Origin: Agrocybe praecox
Taxonomy: Eukaryota > Basidiomycota > Agaricomycetes > Agaricales > Agrocybaceae
Direction: 5' to 3'
Length of the DNA: 64,000 nucleotides
Assembly: GCA_964017145.1 (NCBI GenBank)
Contig: OZ024841.1
Span: 2,728,001-2,792,000 of the forward strand
Of the stretch, positions 1 to 62,533 are shown piece after piece. The notes beneath the pieces are model-generated. The model saw only the letters and a list, made by a program, of their open reading frames with translations. It did not search any database and was not told where the DNA came from. Both the position numbers and the translations under genes were made by a program. Position 1 is the stretch's first letter. Every line of letters starts with the position of its first letter.

Positions 1-1112
1 AGAAGTCAAAATATTGTATATACAGTTTACCGGTGGGCCAGTCATGGTGTTGTAAATTATGAATAGGAAACCGGGCGCCCGAGATCAGTGATAGTGTACT
101 TACCTGCCTTGTTTTAGCCATTAAAGGCATCCTTACAAATGTTTTGGGCATTCAAAAAGGTTACTTTGTAAGGGTACAATGAGGTCTTAGATGGAAGCTT
201 GGTGTGAGCTCTGAAGATATCATATGCAGCCAATAAGAGGTCAGGACAATTTAATTGTACACATTATGAGAGGTGAAAAACTTAGATATCCAAAGACATT
301 TGTATACAGACATCTGGGCACCCGAAGTACAGTGTTTAAACATGATCGGAAGGCCGGAGAAATAAATTTGACACATTACAAGGAGTACCAAAGCCATGTT
401 CTGGACATCCAAAGTTGTAATCAGGTGCGGGAGTCCAAACACAGGGTGTCAACTTGCACAGATGTCCAAACTGAATTTTAAACACTAAAAAGCAAAGGAT
501 TTAATTACCAGACATCCGAAGTTGGACTCAAGCTGAGACAGCGGGACAACTGAAGTAGTGTATAAACATATGTGGAGGTCCAGATACAGTAGTCCTCAGT
601 CACCCAAAGTACAGTGTTTAGACTTGCTCGGAGGTCCGGTTACTGTAATTTTACTTGTATGAAAAGTGTAAAAATCAATTTCCGGCCCTCCGCAGTTGTA
701 CTTGGTACAGAAAGTGTGAATATCAATGTCTGGGCACCCAAGGTACAGTGTAAAAATGTGTCTGGACGTCCGGTTACTGTAATTTTATTTGGTATGGGAA
801 GCTTAAAATATCATTTCCCGGCCCTCCATGATTGTACTTGGTATGAAAAGCATAAAAATCAAAGTCCGGCCCCCCGCATTTACACTCACATACAAACAAC
901 TGGACACCCAAAGTAAAGTATATAAACATGTCCGGCCATCCGGTTACTGTAATTTTACTTGGTACATGAGGGTTAAAAAATAAGTTCGCAGCCCTTCAGG
1001 GTTGTACTTGGTATGAAAAGCCTAAAATTCATTTCACAGCATTCCGCAGTCACCCTCACGTACAGACAACCGGACATCCGAAGTAAAGTGTATAGATGTG
1101 TTCGGACGTCCG
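1..1112. repeat. Left block of degenerate ~170 bp repeat array
   Basis: This stretch has no credible gene. It consists of diverged units that recur every 150-180 bases. Each contains a run like 'accaagtaaaattacagta' or its complement, a palindromic core of the type CGGACGTCCG, and a stretch like 'gcggagggccggaaattgat'. The units read mostly in the complementary orientation here. The same units appear in both orientations at about 1560-2032, 2516-2546 and 3862-5200. Short open frames in this block are products of the repeat and not genes. Whether the array belongs to a transposon terminus, a subtelomere or a centromere cannot be told from the window. Confidence 0.8.
545..1112. repeat. Left arm of a 568-bp inverted repeat
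   Basis: The 568 bases here are the reverse complement of 4199-4766, colinear with no indel where I compared them. For example, a 100-codon frame at 614-916 on the plus strand reappears residue for residue at 4395-4697 on the minus strand. The inner end of the arm stops exactly at the N gap that begins at 1113. Homology continues outward past 545 but with mismatches. The perfect identity contrasts with the diverged neighbouring units. This means either a very recent event or an assembly artefact. Confidence 0.85.
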
Positions 1113-1312
1113 NNNNNNNNNNNNNNNNNNNNNNNNNNNNNNNNNNNNNNNNNNNNNNNNNNNNNNNNNNNNNNNNNNNNNNNNNNNNNNNNNNNNNNNN
1201 NNNNNNNNNNNNNNNNNNNNNNNNNNNNNNNNNNNNNNNNNNNNNNNNNNNNNNNNNNNNNNNNNNNNNNNNNNNNNNNNNNNNNNNNNNNNNNNNNNNN
1301 NNNNNNNNNNNN
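1113..1312. other. Assembly gap of exactly 200 N
   Basis: Two hundred undetermined bases, a round number typical of a scaffolding placeholder. The true distance and even the orientation of the flanking contigs are not established by this sequence. Open frames that run through it are meaningless. Confidence 0.99.
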
Positions 1313-2032
1313 TTCATCCCCACCTCCCCCAAGTAGGTCAACCATAATAGTGCCGACTGCAGTATTTTAATGTCACCACCCCAATATTCATATCCATCCT
1401 ATCTGAGTGCCACTACTCTATCCTACATACTCTATATACTATATTCTACCTATCTACATCTATGCACTTCAGTACTTACCAAACAGACCTATGCAATGCA
1501 CCAACCCACCAGCATGCCTAGCCCAACCAACCTATTTTGTAATTTTTAGGCCCCTGTACTAGGTAAAATTATATCATCCGGACCTCTGAGCATCTTTACA
1601 CACTGTACGTGTCTCTGCTTGAGTGTGACTTTGGAAGTCTGAGAGGTAAATTTTAAGCTGTGGTACCAGCTAAAATTGACAATATATGTAGCTGTTTGCA
1701 TTGAGTACGAGTGTGGAGGGGCAGAAATTAATTTTTAGGCTTCTTGTACCAATTAAAATTACAGTAATTGGACCCCCGAACAAGTATAAACACTATACTT
1801 CAGGTGTCCGGATGTCTGTACATGAGTCCAACTACGGGGGGCTGAAAATCAATTGTTGTGCTTTCTGTGCTGAGTACAACTGCGGAGGGCCGGAAATTAA
1901 TTTTTAGGCCTCCCGTACTAAGTAAAATTACATTGACCGGATGTCCGAACATGTTTATACACTGTAGTGTTCGGATGTCTGTATGTGAATGCAAGTGCGG
2001 AGGGCCGGAAATGATTTTTGAGCCTCCCGTAC
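1313..2032. repeat. Spacer and plus-oriented array units
   Basis: 1313-1550 is AT/C-rich sequence with no gene or motif I recognise. From about 1555 to 2032 three to four diverged ~170 bp units run in the orientation with 'gtactaagtaaaattaca' followed by a CGGA-type core and 'ggagggccggaaattaattt'. The last unit is cut at 2032 by the LTR-like insertion that starts at 2033, and the interrupted repeat resumes at 2516. Confidence 0.7.
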
Positions 2033-2085
2033 TGTCAGGGCAACACTAAGATCAGTGTGACAAGGCCACCAACAAAGACAAAGCA

Positions 2086-2116
<31 letters not shown>

Positions 2117-2515
2117 TAGAGAGAGATAGAGAAATATATATAGAGAGAGACACTCAATGGTTCTAAGAGATCACACCAATGATAGTGGATATCCTAAGAG
2201 ATTGAAGCTGGGGCTACAGCTACATACATGTCCAGTATATATACCCTACAGCTATTCTAGAATATTCCTCTATGACATCATAGAAGGGAATGATGAGTAA
2301 GGCAATGACATCATTAAGAAAGTAAAAGAATAATGTGGAATGATGTAGAATGAATGAGGCTGTGCTCATGGGAAATCAAAGTGATAAGTATCTAATCAAA
2401 TGATAATCAAGAGATAATCAAAGATATGAAACAGATAAGATATCTACACATCTACAAAAGGGAAAAATGCGAAATAAATATAGAAAAATAAGGAAAAATA
2501 GGGGAAACCCTGACA
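2033..2515. mobile_element. Solo-LTR-like insertion, 483 bp, with 5-bp target duplication
   Basis: The segment begins TGTCAGGG and ends CCCTGACA, a perfect 8-bp terminal inversion with the TG...CA ends expected of a retrotransposon LTR. It is flanked by CGTAC at 2028-2032 and again at 2516-2520, a 5-bp target-site duplication. Removing the element plus one CGTAC restores the surrounding repeat unit (cccgtac followed by caagtaaaatta). No reverse transcriptase, integrase or second LTR is present, so it reads as a solo LTR left by recombination. A GA-rich microsatellite lies inside. Confidence 0.82.
2085..2149. repeat. GA-rich microsatellite inside the 483-bp LTR
   Basis: About 28 bases of pure GA dinucleotides, then imperfect GA/GATA-like repeats. 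No function is suggested. Confidence 0.9.
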
Positions 2516-2808
2516 CGTACCAAGTAAAATTACAGTAAGCGGACGTTGTCAACGTGAAAAAGGTTTTCACTTGGGTTTACCGGAACTGTTATGTTCGGGA
2601 TATACCAATTGGTTCGAAGGTAAAATTTAGTATGTGTCGAAGTGTGAAATAGTAGTTCTGTAATGAAAATATAAGGGTGAGTAAAGCACAAGGATGATTA
2701 GAGAAACCAAAAAGAAGATAGATCAAAATATGGATGATAAAGATTATCTTATCTTATCACTTTTGACCTTCATGCCTTATCCTGTTGATACTTGAAGTAT
2801 TCTTGTAG

Positions 2809-3193
2809 ATCAGAATCTGGATGATAAGGCTTACCGATGCTTATCACTTCTGAAATACTGTAAGTCGTAGAGTGTATCTTATTCGTAGATTGTGTAAATC
2901 AGAATCTGGATGTTAAGACTTATCGATGCTTAACACTTCTGAGGTACCAAATTTGTAGACCGTGTAAATCAGAATCTGGATGCTAAGGCTTATCGATGCT
3001 TAACACTTCTGAAATACCAAATTCGTAGCTAGTATATCGTGAGGAACAGGAATATATCTTATTTGTAAGTCAGAATCTGGATGATAAGGATGCTTATCAC
3101 TTCTGAAATACTGTGGGAGAAAAGAAAGATATATTTTCTTGGCAAAGCAGAATCTGAATGACAAGGCTTATCGATGCTTGCCACTTCTGAGTT
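2809..3193. repeat. Five tandem hairpin-forming units inside the 1315-bp LTR
   Basis: Five copies of a unit starting 'cagaatctggatg', followed by a short stem, a loop near 'gcttatcgatg' and the opposite arm, then 'cacttctga'. They begin near 2811, 2899, 2968, 3070 and 3149. The stem arms are GATAAG/CTTATC (copies 1 and 4), GTTAAG/CTTAAC (copy 2), and GCTAAG/CTTAAC and GACAAG/CTTGCC with one mismatch each. Copies 1, 2 and 4 pair perfectly although the sequence differs. Confidence 0.75.
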
Positions 3194-3429
3194 ACCTCAA
3201 CTTTTTAATAAAAGTAAGTGATCCTTGAAGTATGTAGTAAAACTTTTGTAAGTAAAAGCTTTCTTAGTAAGAGGTTTAAATCAGTAGAGTTGTGGGGGAA
3301 AAGGTAGGATGATTATTCTTGTCTGTTATCTACTACATATTTATACTATTTTCTATCCTACTTCCTTGTTCATGTTTCATAGTGACAGGTGTTAATCATA
3401 ATGGTTTTAGGTTGGTAACCATGTGCTTA

Positions 3430-3700
3430 GTGTTAGACTGGCAGATATGTCATGCTAGTCCAACTCATATGTTTTTGTTAGTTTGTTGCATATGTCATGA
3501 TCATAATGTTTTTGGGCTTGTAACTATATGTTTTCTATTAGGCTGACAAATATGTCATGCTAGGCTGACACATATGTTGTGTTAGTTTGTTGCATATGTC
3601 ATAATCATAATGTTTCTAGACTTGTAACCATGTGTTTTTCTTTTAGGCTGACAAATATGTCATGCTAGACTGACACATATGTCGTGTTTTAATTTGTCAT
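3430..3700. repeat. About 2.5 copies of a ~115-bp tandem repeat
   Basis: Units contain 'gacaaatatgtcatgctag', 'gttagtttgttgcatatgtc' and 'cataatgttt', and recur at about 115-base spacing inside the 1315-bp LTR. No coding potential was found. Confidence 0.7.
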
Positions 3701-3865
3701 GTGTATCATGTTTTTCTCGCATATGTCACTTAGGTTTTATTGTTTTTAGAAGTGTTAGTGTCGATATGATTGTAGGGCTTTTTGGGAATGAGTGTATTTC
3801 TTCCTTCTCAACAACCTTCTGTTGTCCTGTTTTTAACAAGAAACAGGATCCAATGCTGACAACGT

Positions 3866-5200
3866 CCGAACACGTTTATACAATATACTTCGGGTGTCCG
3901 GTTGTCTGTACGTGAGGGTGACTGCGGGATGCCGTGAAATGAATTTTAGGATTTTTATACCAAGTACAACCATGGAGGGCTGCGAAATTATTTTTTAAAC
4001 CCCCCGTACCAAGTAAAATTACACTAAGCGGATGGCCGAACACGTTTCCACAATTTACTTCGGATGTCCGGTTGTCTGTACGTGAGGGTGACTGCGGAAT
4101 GCCGCAAAATGATTTTTAGGCTTTCTGTACCAAGTACAACGATGGAAGGCTGTGAAATTATTTTCTAAGCCTCCCGTACCAAGTAAAATTACAGTAAGCG
4201 GACGTCCGAACACATCTATACACTTTACTTCGGATGTCCGGTTGTCTGTACGTGAGGGTGACTGCGGAATGCTGTGAAATGAATTTTAGGCTTTTCATAC
4301 CAAGTACAACCCTGAAGGGCTGCGAACTTATTTTTTAACCCTCATGTACCAAGTAAAATTACAGTAACCGGATGGCCGGACATGTTTATATACTTTACTT
4401 TGGGTGTCCAGTTGTTTGTATGTGAGTGTAAATGCGGGGGGCCGGACTTTGATTTTTATGCTTTTCATACCAAGTACAATCATGGAGGGCCGGGAAATGA
4501 TATTTTAAGCTTCCCATACCAAATAAAATTACAGTAACCGGACGTCCAGACACATTTTTACACTGTACCTTGGGTGCCCAGACATTGATATTCACACTTT
4601 CTGTACCAAGTACAACTGCGGAGGGCCGGAAATTGATTTTTACACTTTTCATACAAGTAAAATTACAGTAACCGGACCTCCGAGCAAGTCTAAACACTGT
4701 ACTTTGGGTGACTGAGGACTACTGTATCTGGACCTCCACATATGTTTATACACTACTTCAGTTGTCCAGCTGTCTCAGCTTGAATGCAACTTCGGAGGTC
4801 CAGGAATCCTTTTTTAGGCCTCTTGTAACAACTAAAATCACATTATCTGGACCTCTGAGCAAATTGAAATATTGTATTTCGGGTGTCCAACTGTGTGCTT
4901 GGGTTCAGCTTTGCAGGTACAAAAATAATTTTTAGGCTTCCCATAACAAGTAAAATTGCAGTATCCGGACCTCTGTGCAAGTATAAACACTACTCCGGGT
5001 TTCCGCAAGTTTGTGCTTGAATGCAACTTCAGAGGTCGGCAAATCAAATTTTAAACTTTCTGTTCCAAGTGAATAAAAATTACAGTAACTGAATCTCCAT
5101 CCAAGTCCACACTCTGTTTCCAGACACTCCCACTTGATATGTCTGATGAAGTTTTCTGGGATGTTTTCAAACAAAGCCAAGTAAATATATAACATTAATT
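3866..5200. repeat. Right block of the ~170 bp repeat array
   Basis: At least seven diverged units run in the plus-type orientation with cores at about 3864, 4030, 4200, 4368, 4542, 4675 and 4845. Consecutive units contain 'cgtgagggtgactgcgg', 'ccaagtacaac' and 'ccaagtaaaattaca'. Units towards 5200 are increasingly degenerate. There is no gene in this stretch. Confidence 0.8.
4199..4766. repeat. Right arm of the 568-bp inverted repeat
   Basis: Reverse complement of 545-1112 with no indels. The first mismatch outside is at 4768, after which similarity to the left side falls quickly. This arm lies within the continuous right-hand array, so it is the better supported of the two placements. Confidence 0.85.
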
Positions 5201-12928: not shown

Positions 12929-15392
12929 ATGGACGATCGGCGTGTTATCAACAATAACTCCGTTATATCTGGCCATAACGTTATTACCGGCGGTACATTT
13001 AACCAACAAAATGTGGCGGGTGACGGACGAAAATGTGAGCATTAAAGATTCAAGGTACATGCCACTACCACAGAGATCTAACTATCTGTAGGGTCTTTTG
13101 AGATTCTGATGAAAGCTACGGCACCGAATGCTTTGCAGGATTCTAATGTCGAGTTTGACCGCCCAAAATGCCATCCGAATACCCGTGTTGCTGTCCTGGA
13201 GAAAATCATGAACTGGGCCCAACGTTGCGACAGGGAAACTTGGGACAAATACATCATGTGGCTGACCGGCGCTGCAGGAGCGGGAAAATCAGCCATCACA
13301 AAGTCATTTATCGAAATGTGTCTTCTCGACGAGCTAGTCCTCGCGACTTTCATTTTCTGGAGAACTGATGAAACGAGAAACCACGCAGGCGCGTTCGTAG
13401 CAACGATTGCTTACCAGATCTATCAGAAAATTTCGGCCACTCGAGACAAGATACTCTCCGCGATTGAGGCAGACCCCTTGATTCTGACGAAGGGATTGGA
13501 AGATCAGTTTACCCACCTAGTCATGAAGCCCCTTCAAAATGTTTGCTGTTCAGGAAATTCATCTCCTTTGGGTTCCTGGGAGGTCATCGTCATAGACGGT
13601 CTCGACGAATGTGGTGACGGGGCTTTGCAGGCCAGGATTCTGCGCATTATAGCAGACGCAATTCGAACATTCGAACTACCCATTCTCTTCCTCATCGCCA
13701 GTCGCCCTGAGCATGAGATCAATCTCGCATTTAAATCGAAGAAAATGGAAGGGCTATTTTCACGACTTTACCTTGACGACACATTCCACCCCGACGACGA
13801 CATTTGCACATTTCTCAGAGACAAATTTGAAGAAATCAAGACCACCCATCCATTCCAGGCCTACATCCCCGCTTCTTGGCCATCTGACAAAATTCTAGAA
13901 GAAATTGTCAGAAAATCATCCGGGCAATTCATTTATGCTTCAACAGTGTTTCTCTATTGCCAATCCAAAAGGCATCGACCTGATCACCGCCTTGATGTGG
14001 TGAATAAGCTACGACCGGCGGCGAAAGGTGACCTACCCTTTGCGCAGCTGGATGCGCTATATACAATGATCCTCAACTCCGCCGCAGATACAGAGCGTGT
14101 GCTATATATGCTCAGTATCTACTCACATCGCGTATACGGGGGTGCCAAAGCCAGTGAATTCGACATATCTATATTTATGTCGTTGGAACCGGGGGACCTC
14201 GAGATTTTGGTCTGTGATCTAGGCGCCATTGTCTCTATTGAGAAGGGTTACTCTCCGTGGTTTAAGAGGGACTTGGAGGTTGTGAAAATTCTACACACTT
14301 CCCTTCATGACTTCCTTCTCGACCCCGTGAGGTCCGGAGATTATTTCCTTGACATTGATACCTACAGACCAGAGCATATTGCAAATATAATTCAATATGT
14401 AATTAAAGGTGAGAGTATTCCCAGAAATTGAACATTTCGAACTAAATTCTCCTAGATCCCATGCCCTATACTATTTCAATCTTTGAGGACTTCATTAAAA
14501 GGGAAATTCCGTTATGCCAGAGCTCAACTTCGCTAATCAATATTGCTGAAAAGTTTTTATTTCTCGACCTTATATTGAGAGAAATAGAATACCACAGGAG
14601 CAGACAGTATGCTACTTCTATGGACATCCGAAAATTCGTATTTTGGTTCTGGCTTCCATTCTGTGCACGCATGGTAAGGAAGAAATCTTCATTTGATGTC
14701 AATATTGTTAGATTTCCACGTAGGCCCCTTTGGATGAGCGCTGGGCTGTAATAAAGAAAAAGCATCAAGAATATATGGATCAGCTATTTTTGTCTCAGCT
14801 GCCGCACTATTGCAAGGACGACGCTGAGGAGATCGTGCTCTTATGCATCGCATATCACCTGGGGAATGACATGTGTGTACCAAAACTTTTCAATTTCAAC
14901 TATATAGAGAAGTTCCTTGGGCGCGGACTAGGCTACTGGGATATGCTCTATCTATGTCAATCCTTTTCTCTCAAAGACGGAAAAGCCCACTATTTTCGGC
15001 ATTTTATGCACTTTCTGCGGCACCCAGACCAATCAGACAACTACCCTATAGGTCCATCTGCCTACGCAGGGGCAGCCTTACATTGTGTAATGCAGTACCC
15101 ATTTTTTCCGCGCACGAACAACTCGGAAGATAAAATGTTGGACGCACTGACCTTGGACAATGGCCAATGGACATTAAACGGCTCCACCTCGGACTATGAT
15201 AGCAGAATGGAATTTCTGTTTCTTGGCTATATAATCTTCTTCCTTCCTCGAGCTGGATTTTCTAAAAGACTCGTTCAACAATGTGAAATGGAAATACGGA
15301 ACCCTTTCGGACTTATTATGCGCAATTTTCCCAGGCGCGGAGCTCTCGTACACCAAGAGATGAAGAATTACCTGGACCGAATTCGATCGTAG
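12929..15392 (+). CDS. NACHT-domain NLR protein, copy B, intact (769 aa)
   Basis: A predicted cytoplasmic NLR-like receptor, part of the large Agaricomycete NACHT expansion thought to act in non-self recognition and programmed cell death. Exons by GT-AG sites: 12929-13034, 13092-14408, 14456-14673, 14724-15392, giving 770 codons with the stop and no break. Residues 1-35 form a short N-terminal region with VISGHNVITGGTFNQQNVAG. The NACHT domain follows: Walker A LTGAAGAGKSAI, FIFWRTDETRNHAGAFVATI, Walker B VIVIDGLDECGDG and the ILFLIASRPEHEI segment. After it come SGQFIYASTVF and LHTSLHDFLLDPVRS, then about 290 residues with no WD40, ankyrin or TPR pattern. No large N-terminal effector domain is present. 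The start is supported by the matching exon 1 in copies A and C. Confidence 0.88.
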
Positions 15393-24977: not shown

Positions 24978-27900
24978 GTCACTTTGGAGAGCGCGTAGTT
25001 GACGTTCGAAAGGCCGATGTGGGACCGGATGTCCTGTTTAAGTGAAGATTTTCAGCAAATTTCTTGAAGTAAAACAGGAACACGGTACGAAGGAGGAAAG
25101 GGAGTGCAGGATGTGGAACGGAAACGGCAAACACCAACCCACATTGCAGTACTTGTTGGTCACTAAGCGCGTGGATAATCTTGAAAGTGTGTATAAATTG
25201 AACGCCAGTATGGTGATATATAGTTCCGCCTCAAAGAGTACATATGTGCGTAGCTAGATTAATGAGAGAGAATTGATGCGTGAACCAGAAAGCAAATCAC
25301 CTAACAACCAAATATAGAAAAATTGCACAGCCGATGTCGTGCCGCCTTCTGTCGGAGTTGAAACGGTGATGTTTAAACGTCTACTGAGACTAGGATAACA
25401 CGGTCTGACACCCTGAATCTATTCCTCTCACTTCAATCTCTAATTACATCTGGATAGAACAATTGGTCATACTAGTAACCCATTATGTTTTATTCATGGC
25501 TGTGGTATGGATGCTCTGGCTGTACTCCTCCGCTATTAAATGGCGGTGCAGAGATCCCATATATTATGTGTACCCAAATATACAGCACAGCGCCCTGTAA
25601 AGAGGCTGTGTCAACGATCAGCTTTGAGACGCGTTGGCAGTGAAGATATAACTACATGCTGCATGGCCAATGCACGGCTTGTACATAAATCTAGGGTTTC
25701 GAAGGTTTGCATGGCGGTTGCTGCGTCACTTTCCTTGCTTTCCCTCATCAGCTAGCATCTGGGATCTGATTTGTCGCTTTCTCTCGAATATCGACTTCGC
25801 AGAAGGGATGGACGACAATCGGCGTGTTATCAACAACAACTCTGTTATATCTGGAAAAAACAATTTCTTTGGCGGTACATATAACCAGTACAATGTAACA
25901 AGTGACGGACGAAAAGGTGAGCAATAAAGATTCAAGGTACTACATGGTACCACGGAAATCTAACTATCCGTAGCGTCATTCGACATCCTGAGAGAGGCTA
26001 CGGCACCTAACGCGTTTCACGACTCTGGGTCCCAGTTCGACCGTCCTAAATGCCACCCAAACACCCGAGTTGCTGTGTTGAAAAGAATCATGAACTGGGT
26101 TCAACTCTGCGACAGGGAAACATGGGATAAACACATTATGTGGCTGACCGGCGCTGCAGGAGCAGGAAAATCAGCCATTACACAATCATTCATCGAGATG
26201 TGTCTTCTCAACGAGCTAGTACTTGCGACTTTTATTTTTTGGAGGTCCGGTACAACCAGGAACCACGCAGGCGCGTTCGTTGCAACGATTGCGTACCAGA
26301 TCTATCAAGCAATCCCTGCCACTCAAAGCGAAATACTCTCCGTGATTGATGCGGACCGCTTCATTTTAACGAAGGGATTGGAACATCAATTCACAGAGCT
26401 GGTGATCAACCCGCTTTACAATGTCTGCTATTCACGAGTTTCATCGCTTTGGGGCTTCTGGCGGGTCATCGTCATAGACGGTCTCGACGAATGTGGCGAC
26501 GGAGTTATGCAGGCCAGGATTCTAAGAATGATAGCAAACGCAATTCGAAAATATGGCCTACCCATTCTCTTCCTCATAGCCAGTCGTCCTGAACATGCAA
26601 TCAACCTCGAATTTAGGTCGAACAAAATGGACGGGATGTTTTCACGACTTTACCTTGACGACACATTCCATCCTGACGACGACATTCGCACATTTCTCAG
26701 AGACGGTTTTGAGGAAATCAAAAAGAATCATCCATTTAAATCTCGAATCCTTCCTTCTTGGCCATCCGACAAAATTCTGGAAGATATTGTCAGAAAATCG
26801 TCCGGTCAATTCATTTATGCAGCAACAGTACTTCGCTATTGCCAATCTATCAGGCATCGCCCTGATCACCGCCTTGATGTGGTGAATAACCTACGACCGG
26901 CGGCGAAAGGTGACCTACCCTTTGCGCAGCTAGATGCGCTATATTCAATGATCATCAACTCCGCCGCAGACACAGAGCGTGTGCATTATATGCTCAGTAT
27001 CTACTCACATCGCTTATTCGAAATTGGATACTCAGACCTTGAATTTGACATATCTACATTTATGTCGTTGGAACCGGGGGAGCTCGAGATTTTGGTCTGT
27101 GATCTAGGCGCCATTGTCTCTATCGAGAAGGTCTTCTCTGTGCATTTGGGCAGGGACATGGAGGTTGTGAAAATCCTACACACTTCACTTCATGACTTCC
27201 TTCTCGACCCCGTGAGGTTCAGAGACCATTTCCTTGACATTAATAAATACAGATCAGATCATATTGTAAATATAATCCAATATGTGATCAAAGGTAAGAA
27301 TGTTCCCAGAAATTGAACATCTGAAACTAAATTCTCGTAGATCCCATGACCTATAATATTGAAATCTTTACGGACTTCATTAGAAGGGAGTTTCCACCTT
27401 GTCAGAGCTCAACTTCGCTAATCAATATTGCCGACAAGTTTTTATTTCACGACCTTATATTGAGAGAATGTAAATTTTACAATGCGGTTGGCACCTATAG
27501 TCAATCTATAGATCTCCGAAGATTTGTATTTTGGTTCTGGCTTCCATTCTGTGCATGCATGGTAAGGAAAATTCTTCATTTGATGTTAATATCCTTAAAT
27601 TCCCCATGTAGGCCCCTTTGGATAAGCGCTGGGCTGTAATAGAAAAAAAGCATCAAGAATATATGGAACAGCTATTTTTGTCTCAGCTGCCGCACTATTA
27701 CGAGGACGTGGCGATCCTGCTCTTATGCGTCGCATGTCACCTGGGGAATAACGTGTTTGTACCAATTGTTCTTGGCCACGCCGAGCAATATCCCATCGAG
27801 TTCAGAACATATTATGATGCGCTTTATCTTCGGGAATCCTTCGCGCTCGAAGACGGAAAGGCTCAACATTTGCAGCATTTTCAGCACTTTCTACAGCACC

Positions 27901-29350
27901 CAGACCAATCAGGCAGCTACGCTGTAGGTCCTTCTGACTACGCAAGGGCAGCCTTACATTGTGTAAAGTATCACCCGTTTATGCCGTTCTTAGAAAACTC
28001 GGAAGATAGTATGTTGGACGCACTGACCTTGGACAATGGCCAATGGACATTAAACGGCTCCACCTCAAACTATAGGGACAGAACGGATTTTCTGTTTCTC
28101 GGCTATATAGTCTTCTTCCTTCCTCGAGCTGGATTTTCTAAAAGACTCGTTCAAGAATGTGAAGAGGAAATGCGGAAACCTGACGGACTACATAGAAGCG
28201 CCTATCCCAGGCGCGGAGCTCTCGTACGCCAAGAGATGAAGAATTACCTGGACCGAGTTCGATCGTAGCAGGGCAACAGATATGATTATCCACATAGACC
28301 CATGTACGTATGATAAAATCCTCGGAAGTAAGCACACCCAGCTAACATATTTAGACATCAAAGTGCAGTAATCAAAATTTTCAACTAGTTGGCGCCGGAC
28401 GCTGCGCTTCGACAAACATACAGGATGCAATATTATCTACTTGAAGAAAAAAATATGGTACAACGTGCGGTTGACGTTGAATATTGCTCCGAATTAATAT
28501 CAAACAAAGGCGGGAGGAAGGGTGGCATAAAAGAGAACAGGGGAGGAATCACGAGAAGGTCAAGTCGTGGACCAAGGCAAAGTTGAATTAGGAGCGTCGT
28601 ACTGTGTACATAGATAATGAGTGCGAGTGTCAAGTCGTGTAATAAAAAAGAGGGAAAGGATATGAGCATAAGTCTGAAGGGAACAGCGTTCAGAAAAGTA
28701 TCTTGCAGGGAGATATACGTAGATGTAGGATAGAGAAAGAGAGGCGGAGCAAAAAAAAAAAAAAGAGAGAGAAATCAAGAGACGGAGCGAAAATCGCGTC
28801 ACAAGAGAAGATAGGAAGGCGAAGGTGTAAGACGGGATGCGATACAAAGGAGAGCAGAGAGCGAGGAAAAGTAGACGGCTCGTGTTGGTGCTCTTAGTGA
28901 TGATAGTGATGTTGACGGGACGTAAACGCCTAGGCAAGAATAGGCAGCAGTCACGTCGATGGGGGATAGCAGAACAAGGAAAGGGAAGCCACGATAGGGA
29001 TAACGGTGAAGTCGATGAGCGACGACAACGATGGAAAAGCGAAGTTGCAACCGCGCTCGCCCTGAAGACGCTGCGTTGGGAGTTCACGCGTAATTGATGT
29101 TCGAAAGGTGTGGGGGAAGAGCGTTGACGCGCTTAGTGTTCGTGTTCCTAGCAGTAATGATAGCAAATCATTGGGGTTACAAAAAGCAGAGAGATACGGG
29201 GGAGGAGGATCAGTGAATTGTTGATGAGGCGAGGATGAGGACGACGACGAGGAAAGCCCAGACGTTCTTCTCGTGTTTGCATTTGGGCTGATCATGGTGG
29301 TTTTGGCGAGAGGCAGGCCCAAACAAGCGGCAGTCGAAAAGAGGAAAGCA
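24978..29350. repeat. Segmental duplication unit C (carries NLR-C)
   Basis: Counterpart of unit B (11362-16310). It begins 53 bp after the candidate Helitron end. It contains the shared upstream block, the NLR-C gene and the shared 3' flank, and ends near 29350 with a piece of repeat R. It lacks the MULE-like insertion of unit B. Inverted copies of one fragment lie just outside both ends (24555-24697 and 29356-29496). Confidence 0.85.
25808..28268 (+). CDS. NACHT-domain NLR protein, copy C, intact (768 aa)
   Basis: Close paralogue of NLR-B with the same four-exon structure: 25808-25916, 25974-27293, 27341-27561 and 27612-28268, giving 769 codons with the stop. Exon 2 opens with ASFDILREATAPNAFHDSG, then Walker A LTGAAGAGKSAI, FIFWRSGTTRNHAGAFVATI, Walker B VIVIDGLDECGDG and ILFLIASRPEHAI. 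The first exon encodes VISGKNNFFGGTYNQYNV where B has VISGHNVITGGTFNQQNV, so the N-terminal motif has changed more than the NACHT core. The start of exon 4 also differs from B, while its end (TLDNGQWTLNGSTS) is nearly identical. A predicted cytoplasmic recognition/cell-death NLR; ligand unknown. The B TATAAAA box is not conserved upstream. Confidence 0.88.
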
Positions 29351-57835: not shown

Positions 57836-60689
57836 ATGCCTTTCATCAAGGTCGACCAAGTTGCCCAGGCGTATGATTATGTGATCGTTGGAGGAGGGGT
57901 ATGTTCAAGCAAACTATTCACTCCGAGTTGTTCTGATATATCTTGATTTTCATTGTCCATTTGCATCCCAGACTGCCGGCCTGGTAATCGCAGCTCGTCT
58001 TTCAGAGGATCCTTCGGTCTCTGTGCTCGTATTGGAGGCTGGGCAGCAGAATCTGGGTGACTCGAAGATCGACATGCTAGCTCAAATCGGAGCAACGTTC
58101 GGTAACCCGCAGGTAGTACATATGCTTCTTCTAACCTAGTTGTTGAACGTCCCAGAAAGTCGAGACTTATTCAATTTCCTCATAGTACGACTGGAATTTC
58201 CCAGTGGCGAGGCAGAATGGTCGAACATCTGATAGCCCTCCGTGGCAAAGAGGCAAAGGACTTGGTAGGTTTTATTTATTCATTCTTGTGCCATATTTAG
58301 GAAAGCGCGTACGTACTATTATGATCTAACGCCCAATTGATACTGTAGGCGGTAGCTCTGCGATGAACTTTTACTGCTGGATCAAGCCGCCTGCGGCAGA
58401 TGTCGACGCTTTTGAGGCTCTCGGGAATCCTGGATGGAACTGGGCAGAGTTTGAAAAATATTCCAAGAAAGTGGAAACGTAAGTACGTCCAGAACTTTTT
58501 GATCGCCGGACATATCCGTGTGGCACTGGCACTGTCGGGCTCTGAGCTCAAAGTTCAATTCTGTTACTTGTTCTATCCTCAAAATTGACAGGATGACCTG
58601 CTAATCCGTACTTTACTATTTTGTATAGTTTCCATCCTCCAACAAAAGAACAAATAGATAACTTCCCCATCAACTACGATCCAGCTTTCCGGGGTGATTC
58701 TGGGCCGATTCACATCACTTTCGCACCGCACTTTCACACCATTGATATTATCTTCCGGAATTCGCTGATTAACAAGGGTATCAAGGCAGCCGAAGAACCC
58801 TTAAGTGGTGATGTGAGTGACTATTACATATCGTGATGAATAATTGAGCGTATAACGTACACAGATTAATGGAACGTGGACTGCGACTTCCAACGTTGAT
58901 CCCAAAGGCTGGAGTCGATCCTATTCCGTTGCTTATCTCTTGCCCAACGTCCAACGCCAGAATCTGAACGTTTGTATTTTCTTCCACTCCTTATTGAGAA
59001 GACTCGCTGATTTAATTACGAAAAGGTCCTCACCGAGGTTTTGGTGTCTCGTGTCTTATTTGCCGACAGCGAAGGAAATGAAGATAAGACAGTCGCAGGC
59101 GTCGAATTTACTCACAATGGTCAGAAATACACTGCCAACGCCAATAAAGAAGTCATCTTATCTGCCGGGTAAGCATTTATGTGACTCGAAAGCAAAACGG
59201 AAAGAAATTGACAGATTATCTCAAAAACCGATTGACTTTAGTGCCATCAAAACCCCGCATATCCTAGAGCTCTCGGGTATTGGCCGCTCAGAAGTCCTAC
59301 AGAAGATTGGTGTAAATACCGTGATCGACCTTCCAGGTGTCGGAGAAAACGTACAAGAGCATATCGGCTTCGGTATTCCTTTTGAGCTCGATTCCAGTAC
59401 CACTCATGAGAGCCTTGACGTACTGCGCGATGCAGACCAGATCGTAAAGCATAAAGATCTCTAGTGAGTCTTCTGTCTGGGAGTTAAAAATTGATACGTT
59501 CCCTCAGCAATATTTTTCGTGATCAGCCTTCAGGGCCAAGGGCTCTACCGCAATGCAATAAGCTCCTTCGCCTACTTCCCGTTATCGGATATTGACGCTC
59601 AGGAAGCCGGGGAAATCACAAGCAGCTTTGAAGAGCATTACAAAACTTTAGAGAACGAAGGAAAATTGACACCGGGCCTCAAGGCGCAACTTGAGCTTCA
59701 AATCAAGATGTTGAAGAACAACAATATCCCTGATTGCGAGTTCGTCTCATTTCCTGGGATGTACTCACCAGTGTGTAAGTTGAAGATCTTCGCAACGGAG
59801 GCTGATGAATACATACTGATAGATGGTGCAGGCCCGATCGAGAAAGGAAAATCGTACATGAGCGTCGTTTGTATCTTGAACCACCCTGTGTCTCGTGGAA
59901 CAATCGTGCGTTCTTTGGCTTTTCATATCAATTATTTTCTTCATTGAGCTTGCTGTAGCATGCTCAAACGGATAACCCCGAAGACTATCCGCTGATTGAT
60001 CCTCACTACTTTGAGAGTGACATTGGTACGTCAATATCATACCTGCCACTGCTCGGGCGTGTTTCACAACCTTAAATCAAGATGCCGACGTCCTAGTTCA
60101 GCAGCTCAAGTTCGCGAGGTCTCTAAAAGACGTCGAACCATTCAAGTCATCTGTTATAAAGGAAGTCGGACCCAGTGTTGGTGCCAATACAGACGAGGAG
60201 ATGCGAGGTTAGTAAACTGCACCCAGACCATACCCTGAGCCCATGGAGTCCCTGTTTTTTTCATGTTACCTCCAGACTTTGCCCGCAACAATGCAGCTAC
60301 CATCTGGCGTACGTCCCCTTTGTCCTTTTATCTTTCTCACCGGGATAAAGCCTAAAATTGAAATACAGACACTGTGGGTAGCTGTTCGATGCTCCCACGT
60401 GAGCACGAAGGTGTTGTCGATCCCAAGTTGAAGGTACATATTTTCTTCGTATCAGATCGTCGAAGAGTTAGCGCTAAGCCAGTCACTCCGTCTCGTAGGT
60501 ATACGGCACCAAAAACCTGCGTATTGCTGATTTATCCATCATTCCTCTTCATATTGCCGCACATACCCAAGTAACGGCGTACGTTGTTGGAGAGAAAGGT
60601 AACTTCGCTTGCAATATGGCTGAATTTTTTTTTCTGACGAATGCCTCAACCTATCAGCTGCTGATCTTATCAAGGCTGACCAGAAGTAG
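57836..60689 (+). CDS. GMC oxidoreductase (FAD-dependent, aryl-alcohol/glucose oxidase-like)
   Basis: A flavin oxidoreductase of the glucose-methanol-choline family, which oxidises alcohols or sugars with FAD. It starts at 57836 with MPFIKVDQVAQAYDYVIVGG. The FAD-binding GGGTAGLVIAARLSED is split by an intron within the glycines. It continues with PPWQRGKGLGGSSAMNFYCW, DPKGWSRSYSVAYLLPNVQR and the GMC signature AIKTPHILELSGIG...VNTVIDLPGVGENVQEHIGF. The C-terminal active site is AATIWHTVGSCSMLPREHEG and RIADLSIIPLHIAAHTQVTA, with His in WHTVG and the second His in AAHTQ as the likely catalytic pair. It ends EKAADLIKADQK. More than ten small introns are implied. There is no signal peptide, so an intracellular location is likely. 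It is convergent with the repeat-peptide gene at 61098. Confidence 0.88.
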
Positions 60690-61097
60690 TATATTTTATG
60701 TGTCAAATTATTTTGAAAGTCAAGGAATCTCGATATCATGTAACTACTTTCCTTCCTATTCCATTCAGAGTCGGAAATAGACGCCTAAAAACGACCCATT
60801 GAGCCAAATGTAATGAAACAAAGACATATAAATTTGTACAAACAACTGTTTAGATACATTCCAAAATCTGGTAGGTATTTTTGTTTTTTTATACTACAGA
60901 CTAGGACTATTTTTTTCTGTTTCGTTTCGTGAAGAGAAGATAAACGTTCAAACTATTTGGCCACAACACATCACCGACGGAGAGCTGGAACGGCGGAAAC
61001 CTACTCGTACAATGCATTTCGGATCGAGGAGAAGAAAGATTCTGGATGATTTTGGATGAAGAAATTGACGATGTGAATGTTGGTTGTTGGGAGCAAC
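60690..61097. terminator. Convergent 3' region between GMC gene and repeat-peptide gene
   Basis: About 400 bp holding the 3' ends of two convergent genes. T-rich tracts (for example 60870-60882 and 60911-60920) are compatible with polyadenylation signals, but no precise site can be named. Confidence 0.4.
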
Positions 61098-62451
61098 TCA
61101 GTCGAGATCGCGCCTGCCGTGAGAATCTCCGTGTCGGCGGGCCTCCAACTCGCGCCTGTTGTGAGATCGTCCACGGGAATCACCGTGTCGGCGGGCCTCC
61201 AATTCGCGACGAGAGTTTGGGGTGCGACCACGACCATGAGAGTCACCGTGGCGGCGGGCCTCCAACGAGTCGCGCCTGTTGTGGGAGCGTCCACGAGAAT
61301 CGCCGTGTCGGCGGGCGTCTAGCTCGCGGCGGGAGTTGGGGGTGCGACCGCGACCATGGGAGTCGCCGTGTCGACGAGCGTCTAACTCGCGACGAGAGTT
61401 GGGAGTACGTCCACGGCCATGGGAGTCACCGTGTCGGCGGGCGTCCAATTCACGACGAGAGTTAGGGGTGCGACCGCGACCATGAGAGTCACCGTGCCTG
61501 CGAGCGTCGAGCTCACGACGTCCATGAGAGTCACCGTGTCGGCGGGCGTCCAATTCACGACGAGAGTTGGGGGTGCGACCGCGGCCATGAGAGTCACCGT
61601 GCCTGCGAGCCTCCAGTTCACGACGACCATGAGAATCCCCGTGGCGGCGTGCATCTAATTCGCGACGAGAGTTGGGAGTGCGGCCACGAGAGTCACCGTG
61701 GCGGCGCGCCTCCAGTTCTTCACGGCGGCCATGAGAGTCTCCGTGTCGGCGAGCATCCAATTCACGACGAGAGTTGGGGGTGCGGCCACGACCATGAGAA
61801 TCTCCGTGGCGGCGAGCCTCTATTTCGTCGCGACGGCCGTGAGAGTCGCCATGGCGGCGGGCATCAAGTTCTCGACGAGAGTTGGGGGTACGACCGCGAC
61901 CATGAGAGTCACCGTGCCTGCGAGCGTCGAGCTCACGACGTCCATGAGAGTCACCGTGTCGGCGTGCGTCCAATTCCTCACGACGGCCATGAGAGTCGCC
62001 GTGGCGGCGGGCGTCAAGCTCTCGGCGAGAGTTGGGGGTACGACCGCGACCATGAGAGTCACCGTGCCTGCGAGCCTCGAGCTCACGACGTCCATGGGAG
62101 TCGCCGTGTCGGCGAGCATCGAGCTCTCGGCGGGAGTTGGGGGTGCGACCACGAGAGTCTCCGTGCCTGCGTGCCTCCAACTCACGACGACCATGGGAAT
62201 CACCGTGGCGGCGAGCGTCTAAGTCACGGCGACCATGAGAGTCTCCGTGGCGCCTAGTCTCGAGCTGAACAACCTCTTTGACGACTGGAACTTCACGAGT
62301 AGCCAATTCTGCGGCACCCAAAGGAACGATCTAATGAAAAAATAAATCAGAATTGAGCAGTAAATATATATTAATCAATAATTACTGGAATAGCTTGTGC
62401 AGAAAGGACTGCAGCGAGGACAAAGGCGATGAAGCTCTTGTTGAATTGCAT
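61098..62451 (-). CDS. Secreted Kex2-processed-type repeat protein, 22 HGDS peptides (432 aa)
   Basis: Exon 1 (62451-62386) encodes the signal peptide MQFNKSFIAFVLAAVLSAQA plus IP. A 55-bp intron (GTAATT...TCATTAG) leads to exon 2 (62330-61098), starting IVPLGAAELATREVPVVKEV. From there to the stop the protein is a tandem repeat. There are 22 copies of HGDS, each preceded by Arg-Arg, alternating with acidic spacers such as ELDA, ELEA or EELDA that are also bounded by Arg-Arg. Ten units are short (HGDSHG), ten are longer and end TPNS (eight HGDSHGRGRTPNS, two HGDSRGRTPNS), and two end in SHN. Arg-Arg sites are classic Kex2 targets, so many small peptides would be released in the secretory pathway. 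The repeat has no Cys, Tyr, Phe or Trp. I know no named family with this sequence; it fits the general class of fungal Kex2-processed repeat proteins. Function is unknown. Confidence 0.88.
61101..62262. repeat. Coding minisatellite, 42- and 63-bp units
   Basis: The DNA underlying the HGDS protein. Units of 42 bp (14 codons) and 63 bp (21 codons) alternate, with one-codon insertions (EELDA, DEIEA). Silent differences between units are frequent, showing that the repeat is not freshly expanded. All insertions keep the frame. The plus-strand frames across it are shadows. Confidence 0.9.
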
Positions 62452-62526: not shown

Positions 62527-62533
62527 TTTTATA
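62527..62533 (-). promoter_or_regulatory. TATA box of the repeat-peptide gene
   Basis: The minus strand reads GGTATAAAAGGG about 76 bp before the start codon at 62451. That spacing would give a leader of about 45-50 bases. A strong TATA box is more usual for highly or conditionally expressed fungal genes than for housekeeping ones. Confidence 0.65.

What the first reader, a model, noticed from the sequence alone, without database searches (positions are those of the whole stretch)
61098..62451. Secreted precursor built from 22 dibasic-flanked HGDS peptides
Seen: signal peptide, one intron, then 22 copies of HGDS(H/R)G with Arg-Arg on each side and acidic ELDA/ELEA spacers also flanked by Arg-Arg. 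Known: Kex2 cuts after Arg-Arg in the fungal secretory pathway, and Kex2-processed repeat proteins include mating pheromones, repellents and the precursors of some ribosomally made cyclic peptides. Inferred: the gene makes a mixture of about 22 short basic/His peptides (after trimming: HGDSHG, HGDSHGRGRTPNS, HGDSRGRTPNS, HGDSRGRSHN) and about 20 acidic tetra- to pentapeptides. The sequence matches no family I can name, so it may be an undescribed peptide system.
Basis: partly seen in the sequence, partly recalled or inferred. Interest (0 to 1): 0.88.

Follow-up and report, generated by a model that had tools for sequence, protein, structure and literature searches.

The report
Mushroom multi-copy secreted-peptide precursor gene
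A mushroom gene encodes a secreted protein that looks built to be cut at paired arginines into 22 short peptides that all start with the same letters, HGDS; it belongs to a known class of fungal peptide precursors, but to a family that has relatives in many mushroom-forming fungi and no known function.

Summary
On the minus strand, 62451-61098, a 55-nt GT-AG intron separates a signal-peptide exon from one exon holding 22 RR-HGDS cores (10 HGDSHG, 8 HGDSHGRGRTPNS, 2 HGDSRGRTPNS, 2 HGDSRGRSHN) alternating with 21 acidic segments, then a terminal DLD. It is an old, selected gene: between copies pS is 0.64 and pN 0.06, and RRHGDS is invariant in 22 of 22. It meets both published definitions of a KEX2-processed repeat protein (KEP), save that SignalP was not available. 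It is no orphan: searches reach uncharacterised proteins in 12 named Agaricomycete species; where starts are intact the pre-pro region matches without the repeats. No second copy was found in its genome. No UstYa match on its contig, no Tyr: not dikaritin-like. No Ste13 signature: not alpha-pheromone-like. Most likely Kex2 and Kex1 release a mixture of linear peptides; cleavage and function are inferred. The class is known; this family is not named in the main texts I could search. A good new family, not a new kind of system.

The parts
62527..62533 (-). TATA-like box (TATAAAA), about 76 nt upstream of the ATG
   Evidence: read; a motif match only
62386..62451 (-). exon 1: ATG and signal peptide MQFNKSFIAFVLAAVLSAQAIP (22 codons)
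   Evidence: hydropathy; aligned with relatives
62331..62385 (-). 55-nt phase-0 intron, GTAATT...ATTAG, directly after the AIP codons
   Evidence: joining gives one 432-codon frame; no transcript seen
61098..62330 (-). exon 2: short pro-region (IVPLGAAELATREVPVVKEVVQLET) and repeat array, stop codon 61098-61100
61101..62255 (-). repeat array: 22 RR-HGDS cores alternating with 21 acidic segments, terminal DLD; 44 RR dipeptides as predicted Kex2 sites

Best explanation
It is a KEX2-processed repeat protein (KEP) of an Agaricomycete. The protein enters the ER by its signal peptide. In the late Golgi kexin cuts after each RR, a Kex1-type carboxypeptidase removes the arginines, and the cell secretes a mixture of linear peptides that all begin with free His-Gly-Asp-Ser (10 HGDSHG, 8 HGDSHGRGRTPNS, 2 HGDSRGRTPNS, 2 HGDSRGRSHN). 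The acidic D/E-L-D/E-A spacers are most likely processing helpers, not products: they put an acidic P1' residue behind the RR that ends each core. The released HGDS peptides probably act outside the cell, as a signal or in interaction with other organisms. Shown here: gene structure, selection on the repeat, relatives, kexin-type genes in the genome. Inferred: cleavage, trimming, spacer role, extracellular function.
For: Gene and frame. Purifying selection: pN/pS 0.096 over 13 codons in 21 copies; the residues RRHGDS are invariant in 22 of 22 although their codons vary (CGC/CGA/AGG at the second Arg; the pN of 0.020 printed for this stretch comes from counting paths between Arg codons), while the four spacer positions, pN 0.128, change mainly between D and E. 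Published KEP criteria are met apart from SignalP (criteria; tested). Relatives with RHG cores alternating with acidic ..EARR spacers. A pre-pro profile of 5 Polyporales proteins without repeats scores the window at 27.7 bits and 7 of 7 other relatives tested at 19.5-53.2, against 7.4 for the best of 1600 shuffles and 3.0 for the best of 5 unrelated signal peptides. In 24 of 29 fetched relatives, over in-frame stretches chosen by eye, 100 KR/RR sites are followed by H 48 times, D or E 33, other 19. P-domain matches lie at three places in the genome, C13 twice and C5, in line with the three kex2 genes reported for C. cinerea and other agaricomycetes (PMC9769878, discussion). In yeasts, cleaved Kex2 sites are enriched for acidic and small residues at P1', P2' and P4' (PMC2515848, passages), which fits RR|ELDA. 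KEP peptides have been detected by MS in four mushrooms (PMC9769878, results parts 1-2 of 3).
Against: No transcript, no peptide, no SignalP run. RR|HGDS has His at P1', which that enrichment does not favour. Single arginines inside the long cores (GRGR) might also be cut, as seen for some KEPs in Pichia, so the product list may differ. RR is partly expected from the Arg-rich composition. Six KEP knockouts in C. cinerea showed no phenotype (PMC9769878), so a signalling role is not the rule. The core is not conserved letter for letter beyond close relatives: Polyporales such as Trametes and Lentinus have HGSGSRGRGDSRG.
Confidence: 0.85

Rival explanations
1. The protein works uncut, or partly cut, as an arginine-rich repeat protein with alternating charge on the hyphal surface or in the matrix, comparable in place to Rep1 of Ustilago maydis.
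For: Very high Arg content (113 of 411) and calculated pI 11.7 for the mature form; Rep1 peptides coat hyphae as amyloid-like fibrils (PMC8528282, passage).
Against: Kex2 would meet 44 RR sites in the Golgi, and RR is kept in register in 22 of 22 cores; spacing between cores varies (14, 15, 18, 19, 21 aa), unlike a regular solenoid; the cores have no hydrophobic residues for a fibril. No fold prediction was run.
Confidence: 0.1
2. Metal-binding peptides: each core has a free N-terminal His and, in HGDSH forms, a second His; the peptides would bind Cu(II) or Zn(II) outside the cell.
For: All 22 cores begin with His and 18 of 22 have a second His at position 5; His follows the cut at 48 of 100 sites in 24 relatives. 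N-terminal His as a copper ligand is recalled general chemistry, known from LPMOs.
Against: The second His is replaced by Arg in 4 copies and the HGDSH form is missing from many relatives read; no metal-transport domain was among the open frames scanned around the gene, which were not all exons; nothing here measures binding.
Confidence: 0.12
3. Precursor of a cyclised RiPP (dikaritin type).
For: Same signal-peptide plus Kex2-repeat architecture; the genome has 17 UstYa matches.
Against: None of the 17 lies on contig C2; no Tyr or Trp, and no Cys, in the protein; neighbours identified are a Rrp44-type exonuclease, MsrA, a probable GMC oxidoreductase and SKN1/KRE6.
Confidence: 0.03
4. Not a gene: a DNA tandem repeat that happens to be open.
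For: The array is also a DNA tandem repeat, long open frames exist on the other strand, and one antisense frame also has a low pN/pS of 0.156.
Against: pN/pS is lowest, 0.096, in the claimed frame, and proteins elsewhere share the same pre-pro region in that frame.
Confidence: 0.01

Closest known systems
KEX2-processed repeat proteins (KEPs), Le Marquer 2019 / Umemura 2020 / Vogt 2022
   Same: Signal peptide, many short repeats between dibasic sites, no Pfam domain, no maturation cluster seen.
   Different: Two alternating segment types: Le Marquer reports two types for 77 and three types for 2 of 1193 KEPs. 22 cores is in the upper part of their range (129 is the extreme, 38 the second highest). 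The peptide letters are not in the searched texts.
Uncharacterised Agaricomycete proteins such as EIP91_009267 (Steccherinum ochraceum) and CVT25_005239 (Psilocybe cyanescens)
   Same: Similar pre-pro region; RRHGDS cores and acidic spacers; Psilocybe has HGDSHGRR-ELDARR units letter for letter.
   Different: Several Polyporales members use HGSGSRGRGDSRG cores and fewer copies, and at least in Lentinus an intron seems to lie between repeats; the window gene holds all copies in one exon.
Ascomycete alpha-factor precursors
   Same: Secreted multi-copy precursor processed by Kex2, with acidic residues between copies (recalled).
   Different: No XA/XP (Ste13) dipeptide after any of the 44 sites; basidiomycete mating pheromones are not made this way (PMC6339444, results).
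Rep1 repellent of Ustilago maydis
   Same: Kex2-processed repeats in a basidiomycete (passages).
   Different: No Ustilago protein appeared in the three homology searches; the cores here are hydrophilic.

Membership tests
KEP (KEX2-processed repeat protein) | N-terminal signal peptide | tested here: met
   Nine-residue windows starting at residues 5-12 average 1.6-3.2 on the Kyte-Doolittle scale, and the start aligns with relatives; SignalP, which the definitions use, was not available.
KEP (KEX2-processed repeat protein) | Le Marquer: at least 4 fragments after KR/RR cutting, at least 3 alike, at least 15% of the length | tested here: met
   45 fragments, 22 HGDS and 21 acidic; 31% (criteria). 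Their FIMO pipeline itself was not run.
KEP (KEX2-processed repeat protein) | Umemura: at least 3 repeats of at least 8 aa between dibasic sites, none over 100 aa | tested here: met
   HGDSHGRGRTPNS x8 (13 aa) (criteria). The ten 6-aa cores alone would not count; the repeat-scoring script itself was not run.
KEP (KEX2-processed repeat protein) | Actual cleavage by kexin | not testable with these tools
   Needs MS; kexin-type P domains at three places in the genome.
Dikaritin / ust-RiPS | UstYa/Yb (DUF3328) gene near the precursor | tested here: not met
   17 matches, none on contig C2.
Dikaritin / ust-RiPS | Tyr in the core | tested here: not met
   0 Tyr in 432 aa.
Alpha-pheromone-like KEP | Ste13 dipeptides XA/XP after the Kex2 site | tested here: not met
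   Segments after RR begin HG, EL, DL, EE, DE or DS.
Umemura type G-1/P-2 (found in most genera of all types) | High Tyr content of the repeat | tested here: not met
   Text; 0 Tyr here. The type's sequence logo and Table S2 were not seen.
RHG-core Agaricomycete KEP family (defined here) | Shared pre-pro region and RHG cores alternating with acidic ..EARR spacers | tested here: met
   The pre-pro region could be tested only for relatives with intact starts.
Rep1-type repellent | Amyloid-forming peptides on hyphae | not tested
   No assay; the composition argues against it.

The most novel reading that the evidence does not exclude
The gene belongs to an Agaricomycete-wide peptide family, with members in up to five orders, whose conserved product is a peptide with a free N-terminal His-Gly: a mushroom extracellular peptide signal, or copper-binding peptide, with its own receptor or metal chemistry and no described counterpart.
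Probability: 0.15. Interest if true: 0.78.

Novelty: new member of a known kind. Interest (0 to 1): 0.47.

Why it matters
Most KEPs have no known function, and most KEP types are confined to one genus (PMC7329392; PMC9769878). A KEP family with a recognisable pre-pro region in several Agaricomycete orders, and no second copy found in this genome, gives a tractable test case: exact peptide masses to look for, relatives in sequenced wood-decay fungi, and a clear question (is the His-initiated core or the spacer the thing that is used?).

Tried and rejected
Exact DNA pattern with fixed codons in the own genome: nothing, too strict. Degenerate pattern for RRHGDS and similar: 36 places, 22 of them this gene, 14 scattered singletons, with 17 matches for the reversed control pattern, so no second locus; with one more Gly: 1 match against 3 for the control. 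Protein searches of the own genome with a repeat piece, the Steccherinum protein, the pre-pro region and a relatives' consensus found only this gene. Pfam: no family. Dikaritin, alpha-pheromone and Umemura G-1 readings rejected as in the membership test. A DPPIV (Ste13-type) gene exists but its signature is absent here. Bacterial promoter and terminator scan upstream: not informative for a fungus. Literature: nine peptide strings against 5.39 million full texts gave no fungal hit (0 papers; 8 papers, seen as a listing only, all for the string RHGDS, by their titles on rose or other plant scent and on unrelated subjects). The species of the window was not determined; the closest start is that of Psilocybe cyanescens (34 of 49 aligned pre-pro positions identical), which suggests Agaricales. 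P0021 (E 0.96) was taken as a chance match; P0019, P0021, P0023, P0027 and P0028 were left out of the tally (24 of 29 used), where in-frame stretches were chosen by eye because several database models run out of frame or through introns.

Full report
Observation. The window lies in contig C2 (2728001-2792000) of an unnamed 59.2-Mb genome. On the minus strand an ATG at 62451 opens a 22-codon exon, MQFNKSFIAFVLAAVLSAQAIP; a 55-nt GT-AG intron (62385-62331) follows; the second exon runs to a stop at 61098-61100. A TATAAAA lies about 76 nt before the ATG (read; a motif match only).

Is it a gene? Codons of the copies, aligned over 13 positions, differ mostly at third positions: mean entropy 0.26, 0.07 and 1.17 bits for positions 1, 2 and 3 (22 copies). 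Between 21 copies pS is 0.637 and pN 0.061. Other frames give pN/pS ratios of 2.1-5.6, save one antisense frame at 0.156. Synonymous sites are far diverged, so the array is old, not a recent slippage product, and the amino acids have been kept. RRHGDS is invariant in 22 of 22. The spacer changes mostly D for E, as if charge and not identity matters. Copies within an array are not independent (gene conversion is likely), so I give no p-value. The count of RR sites by itself is weak evidence: 44 against a shuffle mean of 31 and maximum of 42.

Relatives. A single-sequence search found a Steccherinum ochraceum and a Sphaerobolus stellatus protein. A profile of those with the window gave 21 proteins at E up to 1 (the last, P0021, taken as chance). 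A second profile, which contained nine of them, gave 24 at E up to 0.001, eight of these new; the nine match it by construction. Each search scored only the roughly 8000 candidates sharing most words, so the lists are lower bounds. Named species, 12 in all: Steccherinum ochraceum, Sphaerobolus stellatus, Lentinus brumalis, Psilocybe cyanescens, Trametes sanguinea, Trametes punicea, Cubamyces menziesii, Cubamyces lactineus, Ramaria rubella, Mycena venus, Paramarasmius palmivorus, Sanghuangporus baumii. Orders looked up: Agaricales (Psilocybe), Polyporales (Steccherinum), Gomphales (Ramaria), Geastrales (Sphaerobolus), Hymenochaetales (Sanghuangporus); the other species' orders were not looked up. 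All bear the name 'hypothetical protein'.

Is this homology or only shared composition? I built a profile from the pre-pro regions of five proteins of Lentinus, Trametes and Cubamyces, repeats excluded. Psilocybe scores lowest (19.5). The Ramaria and Sanghuangporus models lack a usable start, so their membership rests on the repeats and, for Sanghuangporus, on a RGRSP..RHG stretch read by eye. The start reads roughly M(Q)F(K/N)..F..FV.AAV...AIP; the Lentinus-Trametes group adds RGRSPV.V.ARDPRHG. Unspliced-looking ORFs (P0010, P0017, P0024) read on from the same place, A(I/A)P, into unrelated letters, which suggests that the first intron is shared; this is inferred from protein letters only. 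In Lentinus brumalis an intron seems to lie between repeats: P0003 and the near-identical unnamed P0023 (98% over 45%) agree up to RRD, then one model splices and the other reads through. The window gene has all 22 copies in one exon.

Machinery and surroundings. Kexin-type P domains occur at three places (C13 twice, C5); the first C13 gene has, by eye, a C-terminal membrane-like stretch and tail. One DPPIV-type gene and 31 S10 carboxypeptidase matches, many of them exon pieces, exist; I did not single out a Kex1 orthologue. UstYa: 17 matches, none on C2. Neighbours are a Rrp44-type RNB exonuclease, MsrA, a probable GMC oxidoreductase (E 2e-4, just below Pfam's cut-off), and beyond the window a SKN1/KRE6 gene. 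I saw no maturation cluster, but scanned 17 chosen open frames, not every exon.

How it most likely works. The KEP model (PMC9769878, introduction): signal peptidase, Golgi Kex2 after the dibasic pair, Kex1 trimming, secretion. For yeasts, cleaved Kex2 sites are enriched for acidic and small residues at P1', P2' and P4' (PMC2515848, passages). Here the cores end at RR followed by E or D, in most copies then L, D/E and A: a good site. The site before the core, ARR|HGDS in most copies, has His at P1', which is not among the favoured residues. I therefore read the acidic spacer as a processing aid and the His-initiated core as the product; this is inference. The cores contain no large hydrophobic residue; the long ones are basic, HGDSHG is near neutral. 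What they do is open. Six KEP knockouts in Coprinopsis gave no phenotype and five bacterial strains were not inhibited by synthetic KEP peptides (PMC9769878); its authors suggest a role in biotic interaction.

Against what is known. KEPs were surveyed in 250 species and in 1461 strains of fungi (PMC6339444: outline, results, discussion part 1, pipeline; PMC7329392: outline, section on diversity, discussion, detection method). The window gene meets both surveys' criteria, signal peptide without SignalP. It is unlike the conserved basidiomycete XSDW motif and the Tyr-rich G-1/P-2 type. Full-text searches for HGDSHG, HGDSHGRR, RRHGDS, RGRTPNS and RHGDS, RHGSGSRG, HGSGSRGRG, RHGGDS, EARRHG found no fungal paper. 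Figures and supplements were not searchable, so the family could be listed there without a name.

Verdict. A confirmed, selected KEP gene, a new member of a known kind, in a family that seems unnamed and is wider than most KEP types. Interest is moderate because the class is established and because cleavage and function remain to be shown.

Noticed in passing
window 504-4807: A 4.3-kb stretch bounded by 609-nt inverted repeats that are 99% complementary and contain 170-bp tandem repeats: looks like a recently inserted DNA element.
   Followed up: partly
window 13109-14431 and 26075-27316: Two similar ORFs on the + strand, each followed by a similar second ORF (14730-15392, 27618-28268), apparently a duplicated gene; the first matches NPHP3_N above and NACHT just below Pfam's cut-off, the other was not scanned.
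   Followed up: partly
P0003, P0005, P0006, P0007, P0008, P0020: Members from Lentinus, Trametes, Ramaria, Sphaerobolus, Cubamyces and Sanghuangporus carry RGDS (the letters of the animal integrin-binding motif, recalled), often inside the core, e.g. HGSGSRGRGDSRG; the window gene has HGDS and no RGDS.
   Followed up: no
P0001, P0006, P0008, P0009, P0013, P0022: Database models of this family seem to run out of frame through the repeats or through introns, so automatic annotation probably misses or garbles members (read by eye).
   Followed up: partly
window 57885-60690: Probable GMC oxidoreductase gene on the + strand ending just downstream of the repeat gene's stop (tail to tail); one of three frames scanned gave a Pfam match, just below the cut-off.
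   Followed up: partly
L009 (G000:C13, about 2727459-2731167): Two kexin P-domain matches lie about 3.4 kb apart on the same strand, which suggests a tandem kex2 pair.
   Followed up: partly
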